IMG/VR virus record: IMGVR_UViG_3300021519_000035
Location: 1-33,685 of that record
Origin: a virus
Length of the DNA stretch: 33,685 bases
Direction: 5' to 3' (one strand)
Under the pieces are notes generated by a model, which was given only the letters and a program-made list of their open reading frames with translations, searched no databases and had not been told where the DNA came from. The stretch's first letter is position 1, and each line of letters starts with the position of its first letter. Position numbers and translations under genes: made by a program. This document shows, one piece after another, positions 692 through 33,283 of the stretch.

Positions 692-895
692 TTGACTGAA
701 CCGCAGCACCTGATGGAGCGCTTCGGGCTCATCACCGAGGACGATCTGGCGTCCCTGCTAGGCGTCACCGTCAAGACCCTGAAGAACCGGCCGCGCCGCG
801 ATCTGCCGGCGTTCGTGAAGGCGGGACGCAAAAGGCTGTTCAAGGCCGCCGCCGTAGAGGACTACCTGAAGGCCCGCACCGTCACAGCCGCTTGA
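692..895 (+). CDS. excisionase-like / MerR-AlpA-type HTH protein
   Basis: Encodes 67 residues containing a helix-turn-helix of the excisionase/MerR type: ITEDDLASLLGVTVKTLKN, then a basic wing and FVKAGRKRLFKAAAVEDYL. This pattern (ED-LA-LLGVS--TL-N----LP-----G-RR-F----V--YL) is typical of phage Xis and AlpA-like factors that bend attachment-site DNA and direct integrase toward excision. I prefer TTG at 692, which has a GGAGG ribosome site (682-686) at normal spacing; ATG at 713 is the alternative. The gene converges on the integrase and their last 14 bases overlap (882-895). That places it as the last gene of the rightward early operon, so excisionase would be made only when that operon is on. 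It could instead be a general transcription regulator. Confidence 0.75.
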   Translation: MTEPQHLMERFGLITEDDLASLLGVTVKTLKNRPRRDLPAFVKAGRKRLFKAAAVEDYLKARTVTAA

Positions 896-1910
896 GCGCG
901 TCATGCACGGACAGGGGGTCTATTCTAGCATAGTTCCGCGCAAGGATTCGCCAGTTCTTGTGCCCGCTTATCAGCGCCACCAGCGGGATTTGCAGGCCGC
1001 CCTCAAGCAACCGGGAAATCGCGTGCGCCCGCAGGTCGTGGATATGCAGGTCGTGGATCTGGCACTTGATCGTCGCCGCCTGGAATGCAGCCGAGACGGA
1101 CGTGCGCTTGTAGGGGAATGGACTATCGAAGTACCGGGGCCGACCCGCAATCAAGTCATAAGTGTCCACGCCCCCGAAGGCGATCAACGGCACCTCCTGG
1201 TCGTTCTTCTCCCTCACCCGGATATCGGGATGCTTGCGCGAGCGGATGACGGCAGAGCGCCGAGCCTCGTCTATGTCGCCCCACTGGATGCCGAGCAGCT
1301 CGCCCAGCCGGAGCGGGAGGACGGACAGAACCCGCACCAGCGCGCCAAGGTCGATCAGGGACCGCGTCTGCGCCTCGCTGTAGGCGATCACCGCATCAAT
1401 TTCCGCCTGCGTCGGGCGCCTGGTCCGCGCCTGCGACTTGCCCGCAATCTTCATCCGCTTCGCCGCCGATATGGCCGCCTCGACCTCCCCCAACGGGACG
1501 GACAGGCCCCACAGGTCGCGGGCAGTTTTAAGCACCTCCTTGAGATAGCTCAGACGGGTGGAAATTCCCCCGCCAGTAATGTTCAGGCCGCGCGCGTAGG
1601 CAAGTACCGTCGCCTGCGTGAAATCGCTCAGGAGACGCCCGCCAAGGTCACGGCGAAGCACCGTCAGTTCGTTAGCTTTGGAGGCTCCCCACCGCTTCGA
1701 CGGCCACACCTCGCGCTCGTAGCGATCGATCACCGGGGCGAGCGTGCCAGACATCGTGCCCGGCAAGGTGCCCGCCATGTCGGCGTCCCGTTCCCGCGCC
1801 CGCGCCCAGGCCACGGCATCGATCTTTCGGTCGAAGGTCTTGGTTGCCTTCAAGTCGGTACGGCGGATAATCGCCTGCCATCTTCCCCCGCGCTGACGGA
1901 ACGTCGCCAT
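882..1910 (-). CDS. int: tyrosine-recombinase integrase
   Basis: A 342-residue tyrosine recombinase catalysing site-specific integration and excision between attP and attB. It begins with a short arm-binding domain (MATFRQRGGRWQAIIRR, residues 1-17), followed by a core-binding domain (about 60-155) and a catalytic domain (about 165-342). The catalytic residues are visible: Arg201 in LPLRLGELLG, a beta-hairpin lysine near 226 (SRKHPD), His291 and Arg294 in HDLRAHAISR, His317 in SGHKN and the nucleophile Tyr327 in ARNYARI. The ATG at 1910 has a GGGGAAGG ribosome site. The gene is transcribed away from the non-coding 1911-2277 region, the expected place for attP. Its 3' end overlaps the convergent xis-like gene, so heavy rightward early transcription would run antisense into int. 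Confidence 0.95.
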   Translation of the reverse strand: MATFRQRGGRWQAIIRRTDLKATKTFDRKIDAVAWARARERDADMAGTLPGTMSGTLAPVIDRYEREVWPSKRWGASKANELTVLRRDLGGRLLSDFTQATVLAYARGLNITGGGISTRLSYLKEVLKTARDLWGLSVPLGEVEAAISAAKRMKIAGKSQARTRRPTQAEIDAVIAYSEAQTRSLIDLGALVRVLSVLPLRLGELLGIQWGDIDEARRSAVIRSRKHPDIRVREKNDQEVPLIAFGGVDTYDLIAGRPRYFDSPFPYKRTSVSAAFQAATIKCQIHDLHIHDLRAHAISRLLEGGLQIPLVALISGHKNWRILARNYARIDPLSVHDALKRL

Positions 1911-2711: not shown

Positions 2712-3958
2712 GCGGCGACCTCGAACATGGACGGGTTAACCGTATGGCGCTCGACCTCGCCATGCTCACGGTGAAAGACGATGGCCTTCATCGACTGTTC
2801 GCTGCGGTAGCCCGCATGGGCGGAATAGGCGTCGGCCGGGGCCAGTACGCCGAACGTCTCGACCTTGCAGCCGGCGTATTCCTTCCGGCTTTCGTGGTGG
2901 ACATGGCCTGTCATCCAGAGGCGATGGGAGGTCCGACCCCAGGCTTCCGGCATGTCGTGCGCCATGATGCCCGGCAGCATGGCGGGTTTGGCCTTGTCGC
3001 CGTGGTGAGTGCCCAGCAGAACCTTGCCGAACTCGTAATAGTGATAGTGGCGCGGGGCCTTATCCACGGTCACGCGGGGCTCGTTCTCGTACAGGCAGGC
3101 CAACAGGATGGTCATGAAGGCCGCGCTGGACGGGTCGTGATTGCCCGGCTCAAAGATCAGGGTGACGTGCTTGTGCCGCTCCAGAGCCGCCGCGACGGTG
3201 TGGCGGATCATCCGCACGCCCACCTCGATCATCTTGGGATAGCGGCCGTCCGCATCCAGCAGGTTCTTGTGGGCGGGCGTCACCGTGTCGTATGAATCGT
3301 AATGGAGAAAATCGCCCAGGAACGCGATCAAGGCTTGGTCGCACGGCGGGCAGACGCCTATCAGGCGAAGGGCCGCGTCCCGCAGGATCTGCTCGGCAAT
3401 CTTGAGGTCGTAAGCCTCGCCTCCGGTTTCGGCGGGCCACGCCATCATCCCGGTGTGGTGATCGCCCACCGGATAGACGGCCAGCAGGTCCGCATGGGAT
3501 TTGCCCTTGGGCGCTTTGACCGGGGCGGCGCGCTTCACGTCGGCGGCGATCTTGGCCGCGCATTCCAGCCACAGGGCCTCGCGTAGGGCATCCTCCGGCT
3601 TCTCAGACACCCACTGTTGCGTGACCTTGCCGGACTGGTCATAAAGCGTTGATAGCTTGACGATCTTCTTGGGGTCGGGAAGCTGGGCAACGTCGGCCGC
3701 CTCCCTGCCCTCCAACCCGGTCTTGTCCCACCGCGCGACTTCCTCGCCTGCCTCGTTACGCAGGATCGATTGGCCCCGGACTACAAGGCGCGGCGGGATG
3801 GTAGACTTGAAGCCCCGGCGCCTCGCCTCGTGGACCCGGCTGCCGAAGGTGGACCGAGAAATGCCCAGTGCGTGGGCGGCGTTCGTAATGGAATTGTGCG
3901 TCGCCAGGAGGTCCACCGCCTCTTGGCACGCGGCGTCGGTAAGGGCGGCGTTGGACAC
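2708..3958 (-). CDS. metallophosphoesterase with N-terminal HTH
   Basis: Encodes 416 residues from GTG 3958, which overlaps the Rz1 stop as TAGTG; an earlier in-frame GTG at 3976 is possible. Residues about 10-50 form a helix-turn-helix (AAHALGISRSTFGSRVHEARRRG). The rest is a calcineurin-like phosphoesterase with the complete metal-binding set: D166-H-H168 (VGDHHTG), G-D216 (FLGDFLHY), GNHD (272-275), the HH pair near 318 and GHVHH (351-355). The family uses two metal ions (often Mn2+) to cleave phosphomonoesters or phosphodiesters, in phages mostly nucleic acid ends or nucleotides. The HTH suggests a DNA or DNA-end substrate. Its place after the lysis genes is unusual for an enzyme of DNA metabolism; the substrate cannot be told from sequence. 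Confidence 0.88.
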   Translation of the reverse strand: MSNAALTDAACQEAVDLLATHNSITNAAHALGISRSTFGSRVHEARRRGFKSTIPPRLVVRGQSILRNEAGEEVARWDKTGLEGREAADVAQLPDPKKIVKLSTLYDQSGKVTQQWVSEKPEDALREALWLECAAKIAADVKRAAPVKAPKGKSHADLLAVYPVGDHHTGMMAWPAETGGEAYDLKIAEQILRDAALRLIGVCPPCDQALIAFLGDFLHYDSYDTVTPAHKNLLDADGRYPKMIEVGVRMIRHTVAAALERHKHVTLIFEPGNHDPSSAAFMTILLACLYENEPRVTVDKAPRHYHYYEFGKVLLGTHHGDKAKPAMLPGIMAHDMPEAWGRTSHRLWMTGHVHHESRKEYAGCKVETFGVLAPADAYSAHAGYRSEQSMKAIVFHREHGEVERHTVNPSMFEVAA

Positions 3959-4227
3959 TACTTGCCCGCCTTCCACTCAATCCAGCCGTCCACTTTGTCG
4001 GCGCAGTCCTGCCCGCGCTGCCAGGTATCAGCCACCCACGAAGCAAACACGCGGTCGCTGGTCGTGTCGGGCTTATCGTCCGGCCGGATGCAGGGGCTTA
4101 GGAGCCGCTGCGGCGGGGGCTTGTCCACCGTCTTTATCACCGGGGTTGGGGCGCCGCAGGCCGTCAAGAGCCCGGATAGGCTCAGACTTAGCGCAAGCGC
4201 CTGTATCGCTCGACGTGTTGATTGCAC
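3958..4227 (-). CDS. Rz1-like outer-membrane spanin lipoprotein
   Basis: Encodes 89 residues with a lipoprotein signal: basic start MQSTRR, hydrophobic LALSLSLSGLL and lipobox LTAC with Cys24 as the lipidated residue. The mature part is short and proline-rich near the front (PTPVIKTVDKPPPQ), as expected for Rz1. It begins inside the Rz gene in another frame (155 bases shared), the typical nested Rz/Rz1 arrangement. With Rz it would bridge the periplasm and fuse the two membranes in the last step of lysis. Rz1 of lambda is smaller; this one carries extra C-terminal residues with two further cysteines. The length is normal for overlapped rather than fully embedded versions. Confidence 0.85.
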   Translation of the reverse strand: MQSTRRAIQALALSLSLSGLLTACGAPTPVIKTVDKPPPQRLLSPCIRPDDKPDTTSDRVFASWVADTWQRGQDCADKVDGWIEWKAGK

Positions 4228-4456
4228 GCATCACCTCGCGGGTTGTGGCGGCAGTTTTTTGAAGGGCGGCCTCGATGTGCTTGTCGATCTCGACGTTGCG
4301 GGCTTCGTTGGCTTGCAAGGTCTTGATGGTTTCGGCGTTCACGGCGGCGGCCAGTTCCGCTTTGCCGAGGTCTTCGTGAGCCTTGAGCAGCAGCCACCCC
4401 AGCAGCCCGGCGATGGCGGCTAGGACGGCGGCTCCGATGACAAGAACGCGGGTCAC
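4073..4456 (-). CDS. Rz-like inner-membrane spanin
   Basis: Encodes 127 residues: one N-terminal membrane segment (VLVIGAAVLAAIAGLLGWLLL, about 4-24), then a helical, coiled-coil-type periplasmic stretch (AHEDLGKAELAAAVNAETIK through about residue 75) and a proline/alanine-rich end. This is the layout of the inner-membrane spanin subunit. The start overlaps the lysozyme stop as ATGA (4453-4456), and the 3' part contains the Rz1 start. No enzymatic motif is expected. The low-complexity C-terminal third is probably constrained mainly by the overlapping Rz1 frame. Confidence 0.85.
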   Translation of the reverse strand: MTRVLVIGAAVLAAIAGLLGWLLLKAHEDLGKAELAAAVNAETIKTLQANEARNVEIDKHIEAALQKTAATTREVMRAINTSSDTGACAKSEPIRALDGLRRPNPGDKDGGQAPAAAAPKPLHPAGR

Positions 4457-6756: not shown

Positions 6757-8256
6757 CTAGAATCGGCCGCTGTAGGACATGCCGGTCTGCAACAGCAGCG
6801 GAACGCCGTTGTCGCCCTCAAAGGTGCCGTTGCTGCCGTCGCCGCATTCCAGCGCCTGCATGTAGTGAAAGCCCAGCGACGTGGTGCGGTGATCGCCGGA
6901 GCCAACCTGCGCCGTGACCTGCGCGGCCTGCACGATTGAGCGACGGCCCGCAAATACCGTTGTGCTGTCCAAGCCGACGCCGGCATAGGCGAAGGTGCCT
7001 GCGACCGGGCCCGCCCAAACGAAGTCATAGCGAGCCTCGAAAGGATCTTCCGCGAGGCCGCACACCCACGAAGCGCGCATGGTGTTGGAGTTGTTCGCCG
7101 GACGGATCGTCGTCGTGGCACACGTCCACGTATCGGTGGAATCGCCCACCAGTCCTCCGACCTGCACGCGGTTGTAGTAGTTCCACACGCCCAGGATGGC
7201 CTCGGTGCCGTTTGCGGCAATCGCGCCCGCCTGCCAGTTGATCTGGCTGGAGCCGTCAGAGCGCACCGTGCCGACGTAGGTTCCACGATTGGCGACGGGG
7301 CCATTGGTAATGGCGACCTTGTTCAGCCATACGCCATTCACGCGCTGCAATTCAGTGGTGCCCGCTCCGGTGCCGCGTGCCGTGTCGGAGGTCCACGCCG
7401 GGCCACGCCCCAACCGGATCGTGCCGCTATCGTTCCACACGAACAGGTCATAATTGCTGTTGGTGGTGACGGCGGCAGGGTTCTTGGTGTTGTCCGTCGT
7501 CGTGTTGGTCAGTTCGGCAAAGGTCGTCGGGACAAGGTTCGTCCCGTCGTAAAGCGGCACAAGATTGCCGTTGTACGGGCTGTAGTAGATCGAGGTCGCG
7601 GCAGTGGCGTTCGCCGTCATGACCGGAGATCCGCTGGTGAGCGTAAGGCGGCCCTGCGGCGTGAAAAACGGCATGACGGAAAGCGTCGAGCCCGCCAGCT
7701 TGGTCGTATTGACCGAGTAGGGCACCGTCTGAAGGTGCCAGACCGGCGTGGTGGCCGAACACTTGACGACGATCTGCGCGCCGTTCGGGATATCGCCCGC
7801 CACCAAGGCGGAACCGTCAGGCCATACGATGGTGCCCGCCCCTACGCCGTTGACGTTGAGGGTCGGCGTCGTAGTCGTGTTGGCGGCAGATGCCTTGAAG
7901 CTGAACATCTGCCCGACAACATAGGCCGTGACCGCAGGAGCCAGCGTCAGCGTGATAACGTCCGACGTGCCACCCGCCGCCACATACGTCAGGGTGCTGT
8001 CCTGCACCTGCCCGGCCGCCGCGTAGTCGTCGCGCGCCACGGCATTGCCGACGCCAGTATGCCGAAACGTCGCCATCGGCAGATTGGCCGTGACCGTCGT
8101 TTGCCCGTCCTTGCAGATCACCGTGGTGAGCGCGGTCTGGATGTCTGCAAGCAGCGTATTCCAGTCGGTCGGGGAGGCAGACGAGCCGGATTGCGCCGGG
8201 TTCCACGAGCCGGGGAGAGATGGAGCCGAATAGGCGCCTGAGCCGTTAAAAGCCAT
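6757..8256 (-). CDS. tail fibre / receptor-binding protein
   Basis: Encodes 499 residues. The N-terminal part (about 1-85) has SPTDWNTLLADIQTALTTVI and then LPMATFRHTGVGNAVARDDY, a pattern seen at the virion-attachment end of fibres in podoviruses and prophages. The middle is Thr/Ala/Asn-rich beta structure. The C-terminal third includes FVWAGPVAGTFAYAGVGLDS and ends SYSGRF, likely the receptor-binding or trimerisation head. No hydrolase motif was recognised, so a binding fibre is more likely than a depolymerising spike. It follows the ejection-protein genes, as expected for the end of the tail module. Confidence 0.8.
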   Translation of the reverse strand: MAFNGSGAYSAPSLPGSWNPAQSGSSASPTDWNTLLADIQTALTTVICKDGQTTVTANLPMATFRHTGVGNAVARDDYAAAGQVQDSTLTYVAAGGTSDVITLTLAPAVTAYVVGQMFSFKASAANTTTTPTLNVNGVGAGTIVWPDGSALVAGDIPNGAQIVVKCSATTPVWHLQTVPYSVNTTKLAGSTLSVMPFFTPQGRLTLTSGSPVMTANATAATSIYYSPYNGNLVPLYDGTNLVPTTFAELTNTTTDNTKNPAAVTTNSNYDLFVWNDSGTIRLGRGPAWTSDTARGTGAGTTELQRVNGVWLNKVAITNGPVANRGTYVGTVRSDGSSQINWQAGAIAANGTEAILGVWNYYNRVQVGGLVGDSTDTWTCATTTIRPANNSNTMRASWVCGLAEDPFEARYDFVWAGPVAGTFAYAGVGLDSTTVFAGRRSIVQAAQVTAQVGSGDHRTTSLGFHYMQALECGDGSNGTFEGDNGVPLLLQTGMSYSGRF

Positions 8257-8258
8257 GG

Positions 8259-10346
8259 TTATTGTCCCGCCAAAGCATCAGCCAAGCCCGCCGCCGCACC
8301 AGCGCGGCTAGAGGAGCCTTGAGCCCGGTTTCGTAGAAGTTCCTGCACCAGCGCCAGCGCGCGGCGGTTGGCGGCCTCGTCGGTGTTGAGGGTCATCTGT
8401 CCGATCTTGTTTCTGACGGCCTCGTTGGGCTTCATCAGCATTTCGGGAATGTCCATCAGCCGCTCGAAAAAGCGCGGCGTGACGCCACCGGGCGAGACGC
8501 GGAAGCCCGCGTTGCCGGTATCCAGGGCCTCCGCGAGCTTGTCGGCGGTCTTGGAGCCCCGCAGCAGCTCGTTGCTGGTGTTGGCGAAGGTGCCCTCCGT
8601 CTCGGCACGGCGCAGGATCGCGCGGGCCTGTTCGGGGCCGTAGATTTCCGCAAGCCGCGCCTGGATTTCCGTTCCGCCTGAGATATCGCGCGAGAGCGAA
8701 CGCGCCTGGTTGATGGCGTTGCGCCCGCTGGTGAGATCGCGCACGGTGTTGGTCGAGCCCGCGCGTACCGCCGCCTGCTGCTGCGTGTTGGCACCGGCAA
8801 GAAGATCGGCCAGCGCCGGCGCGGACGAGTTCATGCCCTTTTCGGTCGTGCCGCTGGCGAGGAACGCACGGCCGGCGTCGAAATGTTCCGGCAGGGACGC
8901 AGCCTGCGAATAGAGCGCATCCGCCTCGGCCAGCTTGGGGTTGGCGGCCTTCAGCCGGTTCATGTACTGCGTGCCGAGGTCGCGATACCAAGAGGCCATC
9001 GGCCCTGGTCGCGCGGTCTCCTTGTCAAAGCCCAGGTCCCAAATGGCCTGTTTGACTTTGTGCATGATTTCGATGGGAGAGGCCGGAGCGCGGTCGGTGC
9101 CGATGCGGGTAGCCTTCTCAGCCGTCATCACGCGGTCGATGGCTTGAGCAACGGCCGGGTTCTCGTAAATCGCCATCAACTCCGGCGACTGCCGCAACCC
9201 AGCGTCCGTCATCTCGCCATAAACCTTCTGGCCCACGGCGCGGAGGTTCTGGTCGAATGCCTGCCCTTCGCCGCGCAGCGCAAACGTGGACGGCGGCGAC
9301 TCGCCCCCCTCGAAAGCCGCCTGAACCCGGCCGGGCGCGGCACGGTCGCGGGTTTCTAGGATCGTCTTGGCATAGCTCGACGTTTCGCCCGGCAGCGTGT
9401 TGGCGCGGCGAGCTTCACGCAGGAACTGCTGTTCGGTATCGGCAAGGGTTGCGCCCTCGCCCAGCCTCCCCAGCCGTGCCTCGATCTGCGCCGGCTCCAT
9501 GCCGCTGCGCTGCAAGGCCGTGGCGAGACGCTCAATAGCGCCCCGCTCCGCGACATTGCCCGTCTTGGCGACCACGCTGTCAGCCAATGCGCTGATGAAA
9601 TTGCCGGTTCCTGCCGTGCCATCGGGTGCAGCGGCGGACAGGGACTGCGCGGGGATGCCGCCCTTGAACAGGCCGCCGATATGGCGGGCAGCGGGCGCGA
9701 TGACCTGTTCGGACACGTAGCGGCCCGGTGCGGTTTCCATTGCCTTGCTGGCAGCGGCCCCCACGAACGGCAGCGCCGCACCGGCAGCGGCCCCAAATCC
9801 GCCCTGCACGACGGCATTCCCGGCGCGCTCACCGAAGCCGCCCTCTCCCTCGCCAAAACCCTGTGCGGCACCCAATCCGCCGCCCACGGCCGCCATCTTC
9901 GCGGCGTTACCGAGGAGGCTGGGGCCTACTGCCGTAGCAGCGGCAGGAAGGGCAGCGACAGAGGTTGCGATATTGCCCGCGATGTTGGCCGTACCGGCTG
10001 CGATTGGGTTCTGCTCGGCAAAGGCTTTGTCCTGGCCGCGCGTGGCGGCGAGGTTCTGGCTGTAGCGGTCGCTGAAGTTCTCACCCGGTGCACCACGGCC
10101 AAAGAGGCCATGCGTGGCAGCATCGAGCGCCGACGTGATCTCGTCGCCATAGCCGAAGGTGATGCCGTTCGCCGCCTGACGGGCGAGGTTATCGACGTAG
10201 CCCAGCCCGCTGGCTTCCTTGCCGGTTTTCTCGCCCTTTTCGCGGGCAACGATGTTCCGTGCGCCCTGTGCGGCTTCCTCGGGGGAGCCCGCCTGGATGC
10301 CCACCACCCGGCCATCGGGAAGCTGGATCTGGAAAACCTCGCTCAT
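8259..10346 (-). CDS. large internal virion (DNA-ejection) protein
   Basis: Encodes 695 residues. After a short opening domain (VFQIQLPDGRVVGIQAGSPE, a motif common at the start of phage internal proteins) comes a Gly/Ala-rich hydrophobic block at about 115-200 (AGNIATSVAALPAAATAVGP, LGNAAKMAAVGGGLGAAQGF) that could insert in membranes. The rest is long, charged and helical, without catalytic motifs. Podoviral ejection proteins enter the cell first and form a channel for DNA; size, composition and position next to the lysozyme-bearing partner fit. The start overlaps the upstream stop as ATGA (10343-10346). Confidence 0.78.
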   Translation of the reverse strand: MSEVFQIQLPDGRVVGIQAGSPEEAAQGARNIVAREKGEKTGKEASGLGYVDNLARQAANGITFGYGDEITSALDAATHGLFGRGAPGENFSDRYSQNLAATRGQDKAFAEQNPIAAGTANIAGNIATSVAALPAAATAVGPSLLGNAAKMAAVGGGLGAAQGFGEGEGGFGERAGNAVVQGGFGAAAGAALPFVGAAASKAMETAPGRYVSEQVIAPAARHIGGLFKGGIPAQSLSAAAPDGTAGTGNFISALADSVVAKTGNVAERGAIERLATALQRSGMEPAQIEARLGRLGEGATLADTEQQFLREARRANTLPGETSSYAKTILETRDRAAPGRVQAAFEGGESPPSTFALRGEGQAFDQNLRAVGQKVYGEMTDAGLRQSPELMAIYENPAVAQAIDRVMTAEKATRIGTDRAPASPIEIMHKVKQAIWDLGFDKETARPGPMASWYRDLGTQYMNRLKAANPKLAEADALYSQAASLPEHFDAGRAFLASGTTEKGMNSSAPALADLLAGANTQQQAAVRAGSTNTVRDLTSGRNAINQARSLSRDISGGTEIQARLAEIYGPEQARAILRRAETEGTFANTSNELLRGSKTADKLAEALDTGNAGFRVSPGGVTPRFFERLMDIPEMLMKPNEAVRNKIGQMTLNTDEAANRRALALVQELLRNRAQGSSSRAGAAAGLADALAGQ

Positions 10347-12169
10347 TTGATGCGCTTCCCGCTCAAGTCGTAGACGGGAACGGCGGCGGGGGCGGAACCT
10401 TGCGCGGGAGCCTGCCCACCGGGGGCCATCAGAATGTTGTCGGGGTTCAAACCGTATTGCTTGGCGCGCTGGGTGAACTGCGAAGCGAGCGCGTCATATT
10501 GCTCTTTGTGCGTTGCCAGACGGCCTTCAGCTTCAGCAATGATCCGCTGGCGCATTTCCGGCGTAAAGCCGCTACCGCCCTGCATGCTGCTGACGTAGCC
10601 CTTGAGCCAGTCGGGGATGCTCTGCGAGCGATAGATTTGGTCCGCGTCTCCGGTTCGGACAACGCCGGTCGGATCGTACAATTTGGCAAGGCCATAAACC
10701 ATGTTGAGGTCGGCCACCTTGTTGTTGCGGGTCGCTGCATCCTTGATGGCGGCCACCATCGGCAGCACTTCGCGGTAGTCCCCGACCGACTTGATCCGGT
10801 TGAAGTCGTCGGCCAATTTGCCTTCCATCTGAAAGCGCGATGACGGCGTGTCCTCAAAGCGTGGCTGACCCGACGAGACAGGCTGGCCGCCGTTGACCAT
10901 CGGCTTCGGATAAACCGACATATCCGGGTAAAGAAGCTGACCGCCTTGGCTCATGGTCGGCTTTGATGCGCGGGCGTGCGCTGCCGCATACTCCGGCGTG
11001 CCGGAGAAACTGGGATCGGAGAAAACACGACTCAGCAGATGCACGTCGCCCGCGTCGGTGCCGGGATCAGGGCCGCGCTGCTGCTTCACACCCTCGGAAA
11101 CCACTTTCATCAGCGCTTCCTGACGCTTGACCTTGTCGGGGATCATCAGGGCGGCGGTGACTTCCGCACGCGGCAGCTTGAGGCCCTGGTAGTCGATGGT
11201 ATCGCCCTGCGGCGCGGGTACGTTCAGCGCCTGCGGGGGCTGCGTCTGGCCGTCCGCGCTGCCCTGCGCCGGGAGGTTGCCCGAGAACTGCTGCGCGTAC
11301 TGCACGCGATTGGCGAAGCCGTGGCCGCCCTGCGGGTTCTGTGGCGTGTATCCGGCCGGTCGGAAGTACGCCATCATCGCCGCCTGACGCGCCTCGGGCG
11401 TCTGCGCCTGCAATGCTTGCTGATACTCCGGTCGCGTTTTGAACTCGTTGGCGTAGAAGTCTAGCTGCGTCGTGGGATTTGATGGATCTTCCCCACGAGC
11501 CTGCGCCTCTTGCAGCAACGCTGCGCGACGCTCATTCCGCCAGCCGCCCATCCCGTATCCGGTACCGCCGTCATGGACTGCATTCGGGTTGAAGCCGCTT
11601 TCCTGATAAAGGTTTCCAACCATCGTCGCGGCAAGATCAGACGGGATGCCGTGGGAGTTCACGAGGTATTGAATCTTCTTTTGTGCTTCGGCCTTGGCCT
11701 GCGCGGGCGGCACACCTCCTGCAACCTGTGTATTCCCGCCACCGGCCGGCATTCCACCCGGAGGCGTGATGCCGAAAGCCGCCATGGCGCGGGTTTGATC
11801 TTCTTGGTCCTTCTTGTCCTTGTAGTCGATCAGCCCCTTGGCGCGCTGGTCCGCGACATCGGATATCATCATCGCGTTTGCCGTGTCGGACAGGTTCGGC
11901 CGGGAGGCCACAATGTTGCGGGCTTCGGTCGGGTTGGTCGCGTAAAGCTGCATCGCTTTGGCAAGTGCCGTCTGGTCGGCGGTCTGCTCGCCCTTGGCTT
12001 CCGCCAGCGCATAGCCCTGCGTAAGGCCGCCCAAGCCACCCTGTAGAGCGCGGGCGAGTCCCTCCATGGGGGACCGTACAGGAGCCGTGGACGTGCCCTG
12101 CTGCGAGATCGCCGCGCCGGTTGCGTAAAGCGGGTTTTGGAGCAGGTAGTCGGCTAGTTTGGACGCCAT
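10343..12169 (-). CDS. internal virion protein with phage tail lysozyme domain
   Basis: Encodes 608 residues. Residues about 168-270 match the phage tail lysozyme (Phage_lysozyme2) domain: YLVNSHGIPSDLAATMVGNL, then YQESGFNPNAVHDGGTGYGM and a QLDFYANEF segment; the Glu in YQESGFNP is the likely catalytic acid. This activity would open a local hole in peptidoglycan during DNA entry. The N-terminal 130 residues are helical (MASKLADYLLQNPLYATGAA) and the C-terminal half is Gln/Pro-rich and charged, as in other ejectosome proteins. ATG 12169 overlaps the preceding reductase stop as TGATG. Confidence 0.88.
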   Translation of the reverse strand: MASKLADYLLQNPLYATGAAISQQGTSTAPVRSPMEGLARALQGGLGGLTQGYALAEAKGEQTADQTALAKAMQLYATNPTEARNIVASRPNLSDTANAMMISDVADQRAKGLIDYKDKKDQEDQTRAMAAFGITPPGGMPAGGGNTQVAGGVPPAQAKAEAQKKIQYLVNSHGIPSDLAATMVGNLYQESGFNPNAVHDGGTGYGMGGWRNERRAALLQEAQARGEDPSNPTTQLDFYANEFKTRPEYQQALQAQTPEARQAAMMAYFRPAGYTPQNPQGGHGFANRVQYAQQFSGNLPAQGSADGQTQPPQALNVPAPQGDTIDYQGLKLPRAEVTAALMIPDKVKRQEALMKVVSEGVKQQRGPDPGTDAGDVHLLSRVFSDPSFSGTPEYAAAHARASKPTMSQGGQLLYPDMSVYPKPMVNGGQPVSSGQPRFEDTPSSRFQMEGKLADDFNRIKSVGDYREVLPMVAAIKDAATRNNKVADLNMVYGLAKLYDPTGVVRTGDADQIYRSQSIPDWLKGYVSSMQGGSGFTPEMRQRIIAEAEGRLATHKEQYDALASQFTQRAKQYGLNPDNILMAPGGQAPAQGSAPAAVPVYDLSGKRIK

Positions 12170-12909
12170 CAGACGGCCCTCAATTCAGCGTTGAGAGAGG
12201 CCATCAGCGGGAACACCTCGCGCGCCACCACGCCCAGCTTGGCCTGATAGGCGGCGCTCAATTCCGGGTGATATTTGGCGAGATAGCCCGCTCGGCCCTC
12301 GCTCCACCATGCCGAGCAAGTCGCGCATTCCGGCGCATTGACGTTGTTCTCGTAGACCCGACAGATGGGCGCACCCACCTCACGGAGATAGGCAAACACG
12401 TCAGCGTGCGACCATTCCTGAAGCGGGAGCCACAACTCGTAGCCCAGCGTCTGATCCCCGCTCACAGCCGGAAGTTTCGCCATGTCGCAGGTTTTGGTGC
12501 CCCGGATGGCGAGCGTGACGCCATCGGCCACCATGCGGGCGTGCATCGGTATCCAGAGGTTATGCCCGCAGCACTCGTAGCGCGCGGAAATGCGGGTCTT
12601 GCCGCCCATCAGCACGCCGGGAAGCGTCCCGGTGCAGGGGACCAGATCGCTTGGAAGGCCGTTAGCCGACGCCCATGCCTGCGAGTCGGAATCAATCCGC
12701 ACGAAGCGCGGCACCATCGCCGCGACGCTATCGACTATTTCCCGAACTTCCGGCAGGAGGTCGCCCGCGTCCACATGGTACAGCGTGATGCGGTCCCAAT
12801 ACGGGCGCAGAAGGTATGCAACCGCCAGACTGTCCTTGCCGCCGCTGAATTGCAGCGCGATATTCCCATACTCGGGAAAAGGAGAAATCATGCGACTATT
12901 GATCGTCAT
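12169..12909 (-). CDS. APS/PAPS-reductase-family (PP-loop) enzyme
   Basis: Encodes 246 residues from ATG 12909, which has an AGGA site eight bases upstream; ATG 12891 is an alternative without one. It has a PP-loop, FSGGKDS (21-27), that binds the nucleotide. It also has paired cysteines Cys113-Cys114 (YECCGHN) and C-x-x-C Cys195/Cys198 (PECATCSAWW), the pattern that holds a [4Fe-4S] cluster in plant-type APS reductases. The usual C-terminal ECGLH reducing motif is absent. Phage members are common but their substrate is unsettled: sulfate assimilation, nucleic-acid sulfuration and repurposed uses have all been considered. It lies between ejection-protein genes, head to head with the plus-strand lipoprotein gene. 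Confidence 0.85.
   Translation of the reverse strand: MTINSRMISPFPEYGNIALQFSGGKDSLAVAYLLRPYWDRITLYHVDAGDLLPEVREIVDSVAAMVPRFVRIDSDSQAWASANGLPSDLVPCTGTLPGVLMGGKTRISARYECCGHNLWIPMHARMVADGVTLAIRGTKTCDMAKLPAVSGDQTLGYELWLPLQEWSHADVFAYLREVGAPICRVYENNVNAPECATCSAWWSEGRAGYLAKYHPELSAAYQAKLGVVAREVFPLMASLNAELRAV
12836..12864 (+). promoter_or_regulatory. candidate promoter of the antisense lipoprotein gene
   Basis: TTGCCG (12836-12841), a 17-base spacer and GATATT (12859-12864) lie inside the reductase reading frame. The spacer contains a CGCTG-AATTG-CAGCG palindrome (12843-12857). A start near 12871 would leave a leader of about 19 bases carrying AAAGGAG before ATG 12890. Each hexamer matches the consensus at four of six positions. 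Confidence 0.4.
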
Positions 12910-13114
12910 GGCTGCAATCCTGCTGGCAGGTTGCGGCGCATCTGTTGACGGAACCGAACTGGGCGGCGTGGCGACATGGACGGGAAGTCCGACGCCGGGC
13001 GCGGCCATTCAGTCCGCGAATGCTCATTGCCAGCGCTATGGGCGCGTTGCGCGCGCAACCCAAGTATCAGCGGTTGGCTATTTGACGTTTTCGTGCGAGC
13101 GGCCGGGCTCATAG
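12890..13114 (+). CDS. plus-strand lipoprotein, probable moron / lysogenic conversion gene
   Basis: Encodes 74 residues: MRLLIVMAAILLAGCGASVD at the start gives a type II signal peptide with lipobox LAGC and lipidated Cys15. The mature domain is about 60 residues, with two more cysteines (AHCQRYGRV and LTFSCERP) able to form a disulfide. A strong ribosome site (AAAGGAG, 12878-12884) precedes the ATG. It is the only plus-strand gene inside the leftward virion operon. It overlaps the reductase start at one end and the last six bases of the ejection-protein gene at the other. A separate promoter is likely. Small surface lipoproteins in this setting often block superinfection or alter the envelope, but this is inference. 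Confidence 0.75.
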   Translation: MRLLIVMAAILLAGCGASVDGTELGGVATWTGSPTPGAAIQSANAHCQRYGRVARATQVSAVGYLTFSCERPGS

Positions 13115-13990
13115 AAACGCCATTCCGCCGACAGTTCCGGCAGCGCTCAAAGCCGAGCCGCCGAGCCCGAACAGGCCGCCCATGGCCGCGTTACTAGACT
13201 GCATGTTCTGGTTGTAGGCGTTCATCTGCCCCTGGTAGGCCGCGATCTGCGGGCTCACCACGTCGGTATTGGCAATCTGCGCCTGCGTCGGCGTGGCATA
13301 CGTCGGCTGCTGCACGCCGCCGCCAAAGCCCAGCAACGCCGTAAGGTCTTGAATGGGCTGGTTGCGGGTCGTCTGCGCTTCGTTGATGTATTGATTTCGC
13401 AGGGTCTGCGCCTGCGACAGGTTCTGGCTTGCGATGTTGCCCGAATTGATGGTCGCCTGATTGGACGCATCCACCCGCGCCCGCTCCAGCGGAATCATGG
13501 CGTTGTTGTAGGCCTCGCCGCCCACCGCCAAGCCTTGATTGGCGAGCATGCTTTTTTGCAGTTCGGTCTGGTGGTCTAGATCCTGATTCGACCGGGCCGT
13601 TAGGGCCTTGTATGCCTCGTCTTTAAGCTGGGTCTGGTCGGTCGGCAGCTTGGGCGCGTTGTTGAAATTGAGCGGCGTGCCAACCGCGTTGTTGACCTGT
13701 TGCAGCGCGGTCGCGCCCGTATCGAGCGCCCCGGACTGTAGCCCGGTGGTCTTGTTGTAAATCTGCTGCTGTTCGGGGCTGAGAGTCTGCGTAGCCGTAT
13801 AGGACGGCACCCAATTGCCGCCAACGTCCTTACCGCCCGTTTCGGCGTACGTCAGGTTTCCATAGGGCGTGACCTGATTGGTATTTCCAAGGGTCGCGTT
13901 CGCAATGCCGGTCTGTACGTTAGACTTCGACTGGTCGCTCGCCGCCTGTTGGGCGTTGAAGGTTGGGGCGGAGCCTGCACCGCTCTGCAT
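13109..13990 (-). CDS. internal virion / ejection protein
   Basis: Encodes 293 residues, Gln/Asn/Ala/Thr-rich and mostly helical, with few charged residues. The front contains NQVTPYGNLTYAETGG, a phrase typical of the first ejection protein of podovirus clusters. The end is a Gly/Ala hydrophobic tail (GGLFGLGGSALSAAGTVGG) that could insert in a membrane. Together with the 608- and 695-residue proteins it makes the usual set of three internal proteins. It begins with ATG 13990 two bases after the GNAT gene stop. The exact counterpart (P22 gp7, gp16 or gp20 type) cannot be assigned. Confidence 0.75.
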   Translation of the reverse strand: MQSGAGSAPTFNAQQAASDQSKSNVQTGIANATLGNTNQVTPYGNLTYAETGGKDVGGNWVPSYTATQTLSPEQQQIYNKTTGLQSGALDTGATALQQVNNAVGTPLNFNNAPKLPTDQTQLKDEAYKALTARSNQDLDHQTELQKSMLANQGLAVGGEAYNNAMIPLERARVDASNQATINSGNIASQNLSQAQTLRNQYINEAQTTRNQPIQDLTALLGFGGGVQQPTYATPTQAQIANTDVVSPQIAAYQGQMNAYNQNMQSSNAAMGGLFGLGGSALSAAGTVGGMAFL

Positions 13991-32586: not shown

Positions 32587-32649
32587 GGCAACTACAATAT
32601 TCCATATCGGCAATTTTATCGTCGTGACGATAAAGGCAACATGGAATAT
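32587..32649. promoter_or_regulatory. immunity switch region with half-sites and nested palindrome
   Basis: Between the divergent Cro-like and repressor genes are three more GGCAA half-sites (32587-32591, 32609-32613, 32635-32639). A nested inverted repeat lies across the centre: TTTATCGTC (32615-32623), GT, GACGATAAA (32626-32634), flanked by ATATTCCAT (32597-32605) and ATGGAATAT (32641-32649). The outer right arm overlaps the repressor ATG (32648). The divergent promoters must lie here, but AT-rich -10 candidates such as TATTGT (minus strand) are not decisive. Confidence 0.7.
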
Positions 32650-33283
32650 GGACCCGAAATGGATCGCTCAAAAGCTAATCGAGCGCGGAAAAACACAAGC
32701 TGAGCTTGCCGCTCATCTTAAACTGGCCCCGCCTCAGTTGAGCAAAATCATGCATAAGAAGAGAGGTATCAGCGACGCCGAGGGAGTCGCGATCCGTCAG
32801 TTTCTTGGAGTCAATACCCCGGTTGAGGAAGTGCGTCCGTTTGACACTTCTGCCAAGTTTCCCGCACGCTCAGACATGGCCCGCGACGTTCCCGTTCTTG
32901 GGACTGCCTGGGGTGGCGATTCGGGGGACTTCACAATGAACGGCGAGACTGGGGAGTATATGCGGCGTCCGCCGCGTTTCAATGGTCGTGCTGATTTGTT
33001 TGCGTTGTATGTGCAAGGTAATTCTATGGAGCCCCGGTATCTGTCGGGGGAACTGATCTACGTCGAGAAGACCCGGCCGCCGCAGAACGGCGACCATGTA
33101 GTCGTCGAACTACTGCCAGACGAAAACGGCACCAGGGAAGCCTATCTCAAGCTCTTAATGGGCATCACGCCTACCAAGGTACGGCTTCAGCAGTACAATC
33201 CCACCAAGGCTATCGAGATCGATCGGCGTCGCGTCGGGCAGGTCCTCCGCGTGCTGACAACCATGGATCTTCTAGGCATCTAA
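32648..33283 (+). CDS. S24/LexA-type phage repressor (CI-like)
   Basis: Encodes 211 residues from ATG 32648; GTG 32624 is an in-frame alternative. The N-terminal HTH (KLIERGKTQAELAAHLKLAP, LSKIMHKKRGIS) binds operators. The C-terminal S24 peptidase/dimerisation domain has the catalytic Ser126 (VQGNSMEPRYLSGELIYVEK) and Lys168 (REAYLKLLMG). The hinge VPVLGTAWGGDSGDF (81-95) is where RecA-stimulated self-cleavage would occur. The usual Ala-Gly pair reads A-W-G-G here, so cleavage may be slow or at a shifted bond. It keeps the prophage silent by binding the TTGCC-N5-GGCAA sites on both early promoters. Confidence 0.93.
   Translation: MDPKWIAQKLIERGKTQAELAAHLKLAPPQLSKIMHKKRGISDAEGVAIRQFLGVNTPVEEVRPFDTSAKFPARSDMARDVPVLGTAWGGDSGDFTMNGETGEYMRRPPRFNGRADLFALYVQGNSMEPRYLSGELIYVEKTRPPQNGDHVVVELLPDENGTREAYLKLLMGITPTKVRLQQYNPTKAIEIDRRRVGQVLRVLTTMDLLGI

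What the first reader, a model, noticed from the sequence alone, without database searches (positions are those of the whole stretch)
12836..13114. Plus-strand lipoprotein gene planted inside the leftward virion operon with its own promoter
A strong ribosome site, signal peptide with LAGC lipobox and two extra cysteines define a 74-residue lipoprotein on the strand opposite to all other genes for over 30 kb. A promoter-like pair lies in the reductase gene. The gene overlaps both neighbours. This is the architecture of a moron expressed in the lysogen, and small surface lipoproteins of phages often exclude superinfecting phage or change the cell surface.
Basis: partly seen in the sequence, partly recalled or inferred. 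Interest (0 to 1): 0.75.

Follow-up and report, generated by a model that had tools for sequence, protein, structure and literature searches.

The report
Antisense prophage lipoprotein in exchangeable slot
A temperate phage carries, facing backwards inside its block of particle-building genes, a small real gene for a membrane-anchored lipoprotein that close relatives have lost or swapped for an unrelated lipoprotein, so it is most likely cargo that alters the surface of the bacterium the phage lives in; the arrangement is known from phage lambda's bor gene.

Summary
The ORF is real: window 12890-13114 (+), 74 aa, AAAAGGAG ribosome site, LAGC lipobox, two further Cys. It is the only evident + strand gene between the integrase (882) and the CI/S24 repressor (32624-33283, also +), so the phage looks temperate.

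Homologues (48-68% identity, purifying selection) sit in the same slot and the same antisense orientation in 14 other contigs, one from a Hyphomonadaceae genome bin. Four close relatives carry an unrelated CC0125-family lipoprotein there, also antisense. One carries a methyltransferase-like gene. Six are empty; L029 is a clean empty site in a phage 98.7% identical, over 1.86 kb upstream, to one that has the gene. This strongly supports an accessory 'moron' in an exchangeable lipoprotein slot.

The phage has its own Rz/Rz1-like spanins, so this is not the o-spanin. The proposed promoter is weak (8/12) and not conserved. The mature domain belongs to an unnamed HCxxYG(R/K) family also seen in alphaproteobacterial chromosomes; its predicted fold is ββαββ.

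Lysogen expression and superinfection exclusion are inferred, not shown. One test counts against simple homotypic receptor blocking: window and L010 share a candidate tail fibre (93%) but carry different lipoproteins. The kind is known (lambda bor, mEpimmI Lpp); the family and swappable slot are new.

The parts
12890..13114 (+). Lipoprotein gene, 74 aa (stop included)
   Evidence: ORF and ribosome site; conserved protein in the same slot of 14 other contigs; purifying selection
12877..12884 (+). Shine-Dalgarno site AAAAGGAG, inside the 5' codons of the divergent PP-loop gene
   Evidence: Sequence; purine-rich ribosome sites at the equivalent place in the relatives
12890..12931 (+). Signal peptide MRLLIVMAAILLAG ending in lipobox LAG|C; residue +2 after Cys is Gly
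   Evidence: Sequence; +2 is G/A/S, never D, in all homologues, which predicts outer-membrane sorting by the E. coli Lol rule (general knowledge)
12932..13111 (+). Mature domain with HCxxYxR and FSC motifs; predicted ββαββ
   Evidence: Invariant residues; AlphaFold2 model mean pLDDT 85.5
12889..13151 (.). Exchangeable slot: homology to L010 stops at 12888 and resumes at 13152
   Evidence: blastn: 93% identity to the left, 86% to the right, unrelated gene between
12836..12864 (+).
   Evidence: not above background, not conserved
12169..12909 (-). PAPS-reductase-like PP-loop gene, divergent from the lipoprotein gene (start 12909 or 12891)
   Evidence: PF01507 41 bits; phrog_424; start alternatives
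13109..13990 (-). Virion structural protein, convergent with the lipoprotein gene (6-nt overlap)
   Evidence: phrog_6121 E 2.7e-48
32624..33283 (+). CI-like S24 repressor, same strand as the lipoprotein gene
   Evidence: PF00717 48.6 bits, phrog_4
882..1910 (-). Tyrosine integrase
   Evidence: PF00589 45.8 bits, phrog_1
4073..4456 (-). Rz-like i-spanin
   Evidence: phrog_214 E 0.0015 (weak); N-terminal membrane helix
3958..4227 (-). Rz1-like o-spanin (lipobox LTAC, Pro-rich) overlapping the Rz-like gene in another frame
   Evidence: Sequence
6757..8256 (-). Candidate tail fibre / receptor-binding protein (conserved N-terminus, variable C-terminus)
   Evidence: 93% over its full length with L010; only about residues 1-190 shared with most other relatives

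Best explanation
The ORF is an accessory (moron) gene of a temperate alphaproteobacterial phage. It encodes a small lipoprotein, probably anchored in the outer membrane. Because it faces against the late operon it is outside late-gene control and is most likely transcribed on its own from the prophage, so the lysogen displays it. The slot between the virion gene and the PP-loop gene tolerates presence, absence or replacement of the lipoprotein. Most likely function: the lysogen's envelope is changed so that other phages adsorb or inject less well (superinfection exclusion), by the lipoprotein binding an outer-membrane or periplasmic partner. Shown: real conserved gene, lipoprotein features, temperate phage, antisense slot, gain/loss/swap. 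Inferred: expression in lysogens, outer-membrane location, disulfide between C47 and C69, exclusion. Separate estimates: accessory lipoprotein moron 0.9; expressed in lysogens 0.75; exclusion as the main function 0.4.
For: Conserved frame, lipobox and purifying selection. Same slot and antisense orientation in all 15 contigs with this family, window included, and in all 4 with the CC0125-family lipoprotein, NF047637 87 bits against a cut-off of 40. Six relatives have the virion and PP-loop genes directly adjacent, without the insert. L029 is 83% identical to L032 across a clean empty site with an 8-nt microhomology, and 98.7% identical over 1.86 kb to L004, which has the gene. Window and L010 are 86-93% identical on both sides of unrelated slot genes. 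Integrase and CI-like S24 repressor; integrase or S24 also in relatives with the gene. Relatives of the mature domain lie among chromosomal genes. Precedents: lambda bor lies opposite to the late genes and is expressed in lysogens (PMC7067206); an independently transcribed gene antisense to lytic genes is described there as typical of morons; mEpimmI exclusion lipoproteins lie within the structural cluster, come in several types and exclude phages when expressed (PMC11893012).
Against: No transcript data. No consensus promoter or terminator found; the promoter-like pair is weak and not conserved. Window and L010 share a candidate tail fibre at 93% over its full length but carry different lipoproteins. 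L011 has a different lipoprotein although its ejection-type proteins are 75-88% identical to the window's. Neither supports a lipoprotein tailored to block the phage's own receptor or own ejection proteins. Neither lipoprotein matches a PADLOC model.
Confidence: 0.6

Rival explanations
1. Lysogen-expressed moron that helps the host cell rather than excluding phage (Bor-like conversion: envelope stress, surface properties, motility or predation resistance).
For: The mature domain belongs to a family also present as chromosomal lipoproteins (for example L122, next to a ZnuB-like permease), and the alternative occupant is a bacterial lipoprotein family, CC0125/CC1285. No co-variation with tail fibre. 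Best fold match is YecR, a lipoprotein found on the outside of the flagellar L-ring, though at Z 6.1 this is only a lead.
Against: No chromosomal relative has a known function, and no phenotype is known. Exchange of types within a phage species fits an arms race at least as well.
Confidence: 0.3
2. Lytic-phase surface protein, in the manner of T5 Llp: made during infection from an early or constitutive promoter to stop receptor binding by released progeny or competitors.
For: Not every relative contig shows an integrase or S24 repressor, and lipoproteins of that type exist in virulent phages (general knowledge).
Against: The window has an integrase and a CI-like repressor. The contigs without them are fragments. 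The gene faces against the late operon.
Confidence: 0.1
3. The plus-strand transcript itself matters: an antisense RNA over the virion or PP-loop gene that silences an incoming phage, as STnc6030 does in BTP1, with or without the protein.
For: STnc6030 is antisense to tail and injection genes and gives exclusion (PMC7067206). The arrangement here would give read-through antisense RNA over 13109-13990.
Against: The reading frame is under purifying selection with lipobox, ribosome site and Cys kept. The slot sequence itself is replaced wholesale while the lipoprotein character is kept.
Confidence: 0.07
4. Lysis protein (o-spanin or u-spanin).
For: Small outer-membrane-type lipoprotein in a phage.
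Against: An Rz-like gene with an overlapping Rz1-like lipoprotein lies next to holin and endolysin. The gene is antisense to the late operon, dispensable, and shares fold-type Cys motifs with chromosomal lipoproteins.
Confidence: 0.02
5. Chance ORF opposite coding sequence.
For: The genome is GC-rich and full of long antisense frames.
Against: The slot is not opposite another gene except at its ends; conserved protein, selection, swaps and empty sites.
Confidence: 0.01

Closest known systems
Phage lambda Bor (PF06291)
   Same: Small lipoprotein with two further Cys, encoded on the strand opposite to the late operon of a temperate phage; expressed in lysogens (PMC7067206).
   Different: No sequence match beyond the signal peptide; lies after Rz/Rz1, not between virion genes; this one has no known phenotype.
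Lpp superinfection-exclusion lipoproteins of mEpimmI coliphages (PMC11893012)
   Same: Lipobox-defined small lipoproteins within the structural gene cluster, several types exchanged among related temperate phages.
   Different: Exclusion shown there by expression; not tested here. No sequence comparison was made; the strand of those genes was not read from the paper.
CC0125/CC1285 family lipoprotein (NF047637)
   Same: Occupies the same slot and strand in L010-L012 and L025, behind a near-identical ribosome site and signal peptide.
   Different: About 166 aa with an unrelated mature part; the window protein does not match NF047637.
YecR lipoprotein of the flagellar LP ring (PF13992; 7bgl chain 1)
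   Same: Lipoprotein; best structural match of the mature-domain model, Z 6.1, rmsd 2.3 over 56 residues.
   Different: Z below 8, so possibly only a common arrangement; hhalign aligns only the signal peptide; no Pfam match.

Membership tests
Prophage moron (accessory gene) | Present, absent or replaced at one site in otherwise closely related phages | tested here: met
Prophage moron (accessory gene) | Own transcription unit, expressed in the lysogen | tested here: inconclusive
   Antisense to late genes; no promoter or terminator above background; no RNA data
Prophage moron (accessory gene) | Carried by a temperate phage | tested here: met
   Integrase and CI-like S24 repressor
Bacterial lipoprotein | Basic N-terminus, hydrophobic stretch and lipobox with conserved Cys | tested here: met
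   MRLLIVMAAILLAGC; Cys invariant in the phage set
Lambda Bor (PF06291) | Match to the Bor profile | tested here: not met
   No Pfam match; hhalign aligns signal peptide only
YecR (PF13992) | Match to the YecR profile | tested here: not met
   No Pfam match; hhalign aligns signal peptide only
YecR (PF13992) | Same fold | tested here: inconclusive
   Z 6.1, rmsd 2.3, 56 aligned
Superinfection-exclusion lipoprotein | Expression lowers plating or adsorption of phage | not testable with these tools
   Needs an infection assay
Superinfection-exclusion lipoprotein | Lipoprotein type follows receptor-binding or ejection proteins (expected only for homotypic blocking) | tested here: not met
   few genomes and the tail fibre is itself an inference
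o-spanin | Paired with an i-spanin in the lysis cassette, late-sense strand | tested here: not met
   A separate Rz/Rz1-like pair is present; this gene is antisense and about 8.5 kb away

The most novel reading that the evidence does not exclude
A dedicated lipoprotein-exchange slot: a fixed antisense site in the late operon of an alphaproteobacterial temperate phage lineage where a shared ribosome site and signal peptide serve as a landing platform for unrelated host-derived lipoprotein domains, giving lysogens a switchable outer-membrane coat that filters competing phages.
Probability: 0.25. Interest if true: 0.65.

Novelty: new member of a known kind. Interest (0 to 1): 0.42.

Why it matters
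It gives a defined, testable set of natural alleles (two lipoprotein families and empty sites in near-identical phages) for asking what prophage lipoproteins do to the envelope of alphaproteobacteria, where such systems are little studied. It also names an uncatalogued HCxxYG(R/K) small-lipoprotein family shared by phages and bacterial chromosomes.

Tried and rejected
Pfam, NCBIfam, PHROGs and PADLOC gave no family for the protein. tblastn against 50,697 phage records found nothing. A genome-contig scan with the single sequence found no relative; the PP-loop alignment was then used to reach genome bins. Foldseek against PDB and BFVD gave no significant match; the VIA second look gave YecR at Z 6.1 only. 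No sequence relation to YecR or Bor beyond the signal peptide. The CC0125-type model had pLDDT 31 and was not used. Synonymous-site conservation in the PP-loop gene showed no clear promoter signal specific to phages with the gene: the codon 11-20 stretch is conserved also where the slot is empty. The spanin and chance-ORF readings were rejected as stated.

Full report
What is there. The ORF at 12890-13114 (+) is as described: AAAAGGAG, five bases, ATG, then MRLLIVMAAILLAG|C and a 60-residue mature part with Cys at 47 and 69. A filter for ribosome site, signal peptide and lipobox finds only this ORF in the window and none in 30 dinucleotide shuffles. The window is an IMG/VR virus record of 33,685 bases. 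From 0.9 to 32.4 kb the recognisable genes are on the - strand; the CI-like S24 repressor at 32624-33283 is on the + strand, like the lipoprotein gene, and a tyrosine integrase lies at 882-1910. The phage therefore looks temperate.

Neighbours. To the left is a PAPS-reductase-like PP-loop gene on the - strand, to the right a virion structural protein gene on the - strand. The two 5' ends overlap: the lipoprotein ribosome site lies inside the PP-loop gene, whose start is either 12891 (no ribosome site) or 12909 (AGGA upstream). The second is more likely because several relatives have no start codon at the first position but one a few codons upstream. The 3' end overlaps the virion gene by 6 nt.

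Conservation and selection. Homologues (48-68% identity to the window) were found in 13 other viral contigs and one contig of a Hyphomonadaceae genome bin, L108; L004-L007 are near-identical to each other, as are L008 and L009. Eighteen positions are invariant across nine representatives, including the lipid Cys, TExGG, HC, Y, R, and FSC. Most pairs are saturated at synonymous sites; the unsaturated trio L032, L034, L035 gives dN/dS 0.14-0.21. So the protein is what is selected.

The slot. In every one of these contigs the gene lies between the same two genes and faces against them. In L010, L011, L012 and L025 the same place, on the same strand, holds a 164-167 aa lipoprotein of the CC0125/CC1285 family (NF047637, 87 bits; cut-off 40) behind a closely similar ribosome site and signal peptide. 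In L015 it holds what looks by eye like a methyltransferase gene on the late-sense strand. In L028, L029, L036, L104, L105 and L106 nothing lies between the virion gene and the PP-loop gene.

Boundaries. Window against L010: 93% identity up to 12888, resuming at 13152 with 86%, so the swapped segment starts at the start codon and ends just inside the virion gene. Against L012 the match reaches 12915, into the signal-peptide codons. L029 aligns to L032 at 83% on both sides of the slot, with about 206 bases missing and 8 nt of shared sequence at the junction. L029 is also 98.7% identical over 1.86 kb upstream to L004, which has the gene. Gain or loss is thus recent and clean. I cannot tell insertion from deletion in each case; the wider group (PP-loop gene under 50% identity) showed no lipoprotein by the same filter at this site, which favours gain within this lineage.

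What the protein is. No Pfam, NCBIfam, PHROG or PADLOC family matches. A profile search of 385 genomes of the class of L108 found matches in 12 at E up to 0.01, the L108 genome included; the stronger ones carry the same A..HC..YGK...FxC pattern behind lipoprotein-like or secretory signal peptides, and the contexts viewed (for example next to a ZnuB-like permease) are chromosomal rather than phage. The mature domain is predicted as ββαββ with mean pLDDT 85.5. The best solved relative in fold is YecR, the lipoprotein on the outside of the flagellar L-ring, at Z 6.1; that is below the level I would trust, and sequence profiles align only the signal peptides. Residue +2 after the lipid Cys is G, A or S throughout, never Asp, which by the E. 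coli Lol rule predicts the outer membrane (inference).

How it most likely works. Placement against the late operon means it is not made as part of that operon. The usual reason for this arrangement in prophages is independent transcription in the lysogen: lambda bor lies opposite to the lysis genes and is expressed in lysogens, and an independently transcribed gene antisense to lytic genes has been described as typical of morons (PMC7067206). mEpimmI coliphages carry exchangeable lipoproteins in their structural cluster that exclude phages when expressed (PMC11893012). By analogy the present protein most likely sits in the lysogen's outer membrane and hinders other phages, but a host-benefit role is nearly as likely.

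Tests that went against parts of the idea. If the lipoprotein blocked the phage's own receptor, types should follow the receptor-binding protein; window and L010 have a candidate tail fibre 93% identical over its full length but different lipoproteins. Nor do types follow the two large ejection-type proteins (L010 35% and 42%, L011 75% and 88%, both with the CC0125 type). This argues against strictly homotypic blocking, not against exclusion of other phages.

Not a spanin. An Rz-like gene (4073-4456) with an overlapping Rz1-like lipoprotein frame (3958-4227, LTAC lipobox, Pro-rich) lies beside the endolysin and holin, although the Rz match is weak (E 0.0015).

Verdict. Observation confirmed; moron interpretation supported by comparative data; exclusion plausible but untested. 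A new protein family in a known kind of place.

Noticed in passing
L015:2560-3360: The slot holds a methyltransferase-like gene (by eye, HVLDAGCGVG motif) on the late-sense strand instead of an antisense lipoprotein.
   Followed up: partly
[quoted passage not shown]
   Followed up: no
window 12169-12909 (-): PP-loop gene related to PAPS reductases, conserved in late operons of many phages of Alphaproteobacteria and Burkholderiales; weak PADLOC match to SspD (E 2e-4).
   Followed up: no
window 10343-12169 (-) against L010: L010 is 93-99% identical to the window over much of the late region but its 608-aa and 695-aa ejection-type proteins are only 35% and 42% identical, a second recombination module next to the lipoprotein slot.
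   Followed up: no
L122, L123, L125, L133: Small chromosomal lipoprotein or secreted proteins with the A..HC..YGK...FxC pattern, without a Pfam family.
   Followed up: partly
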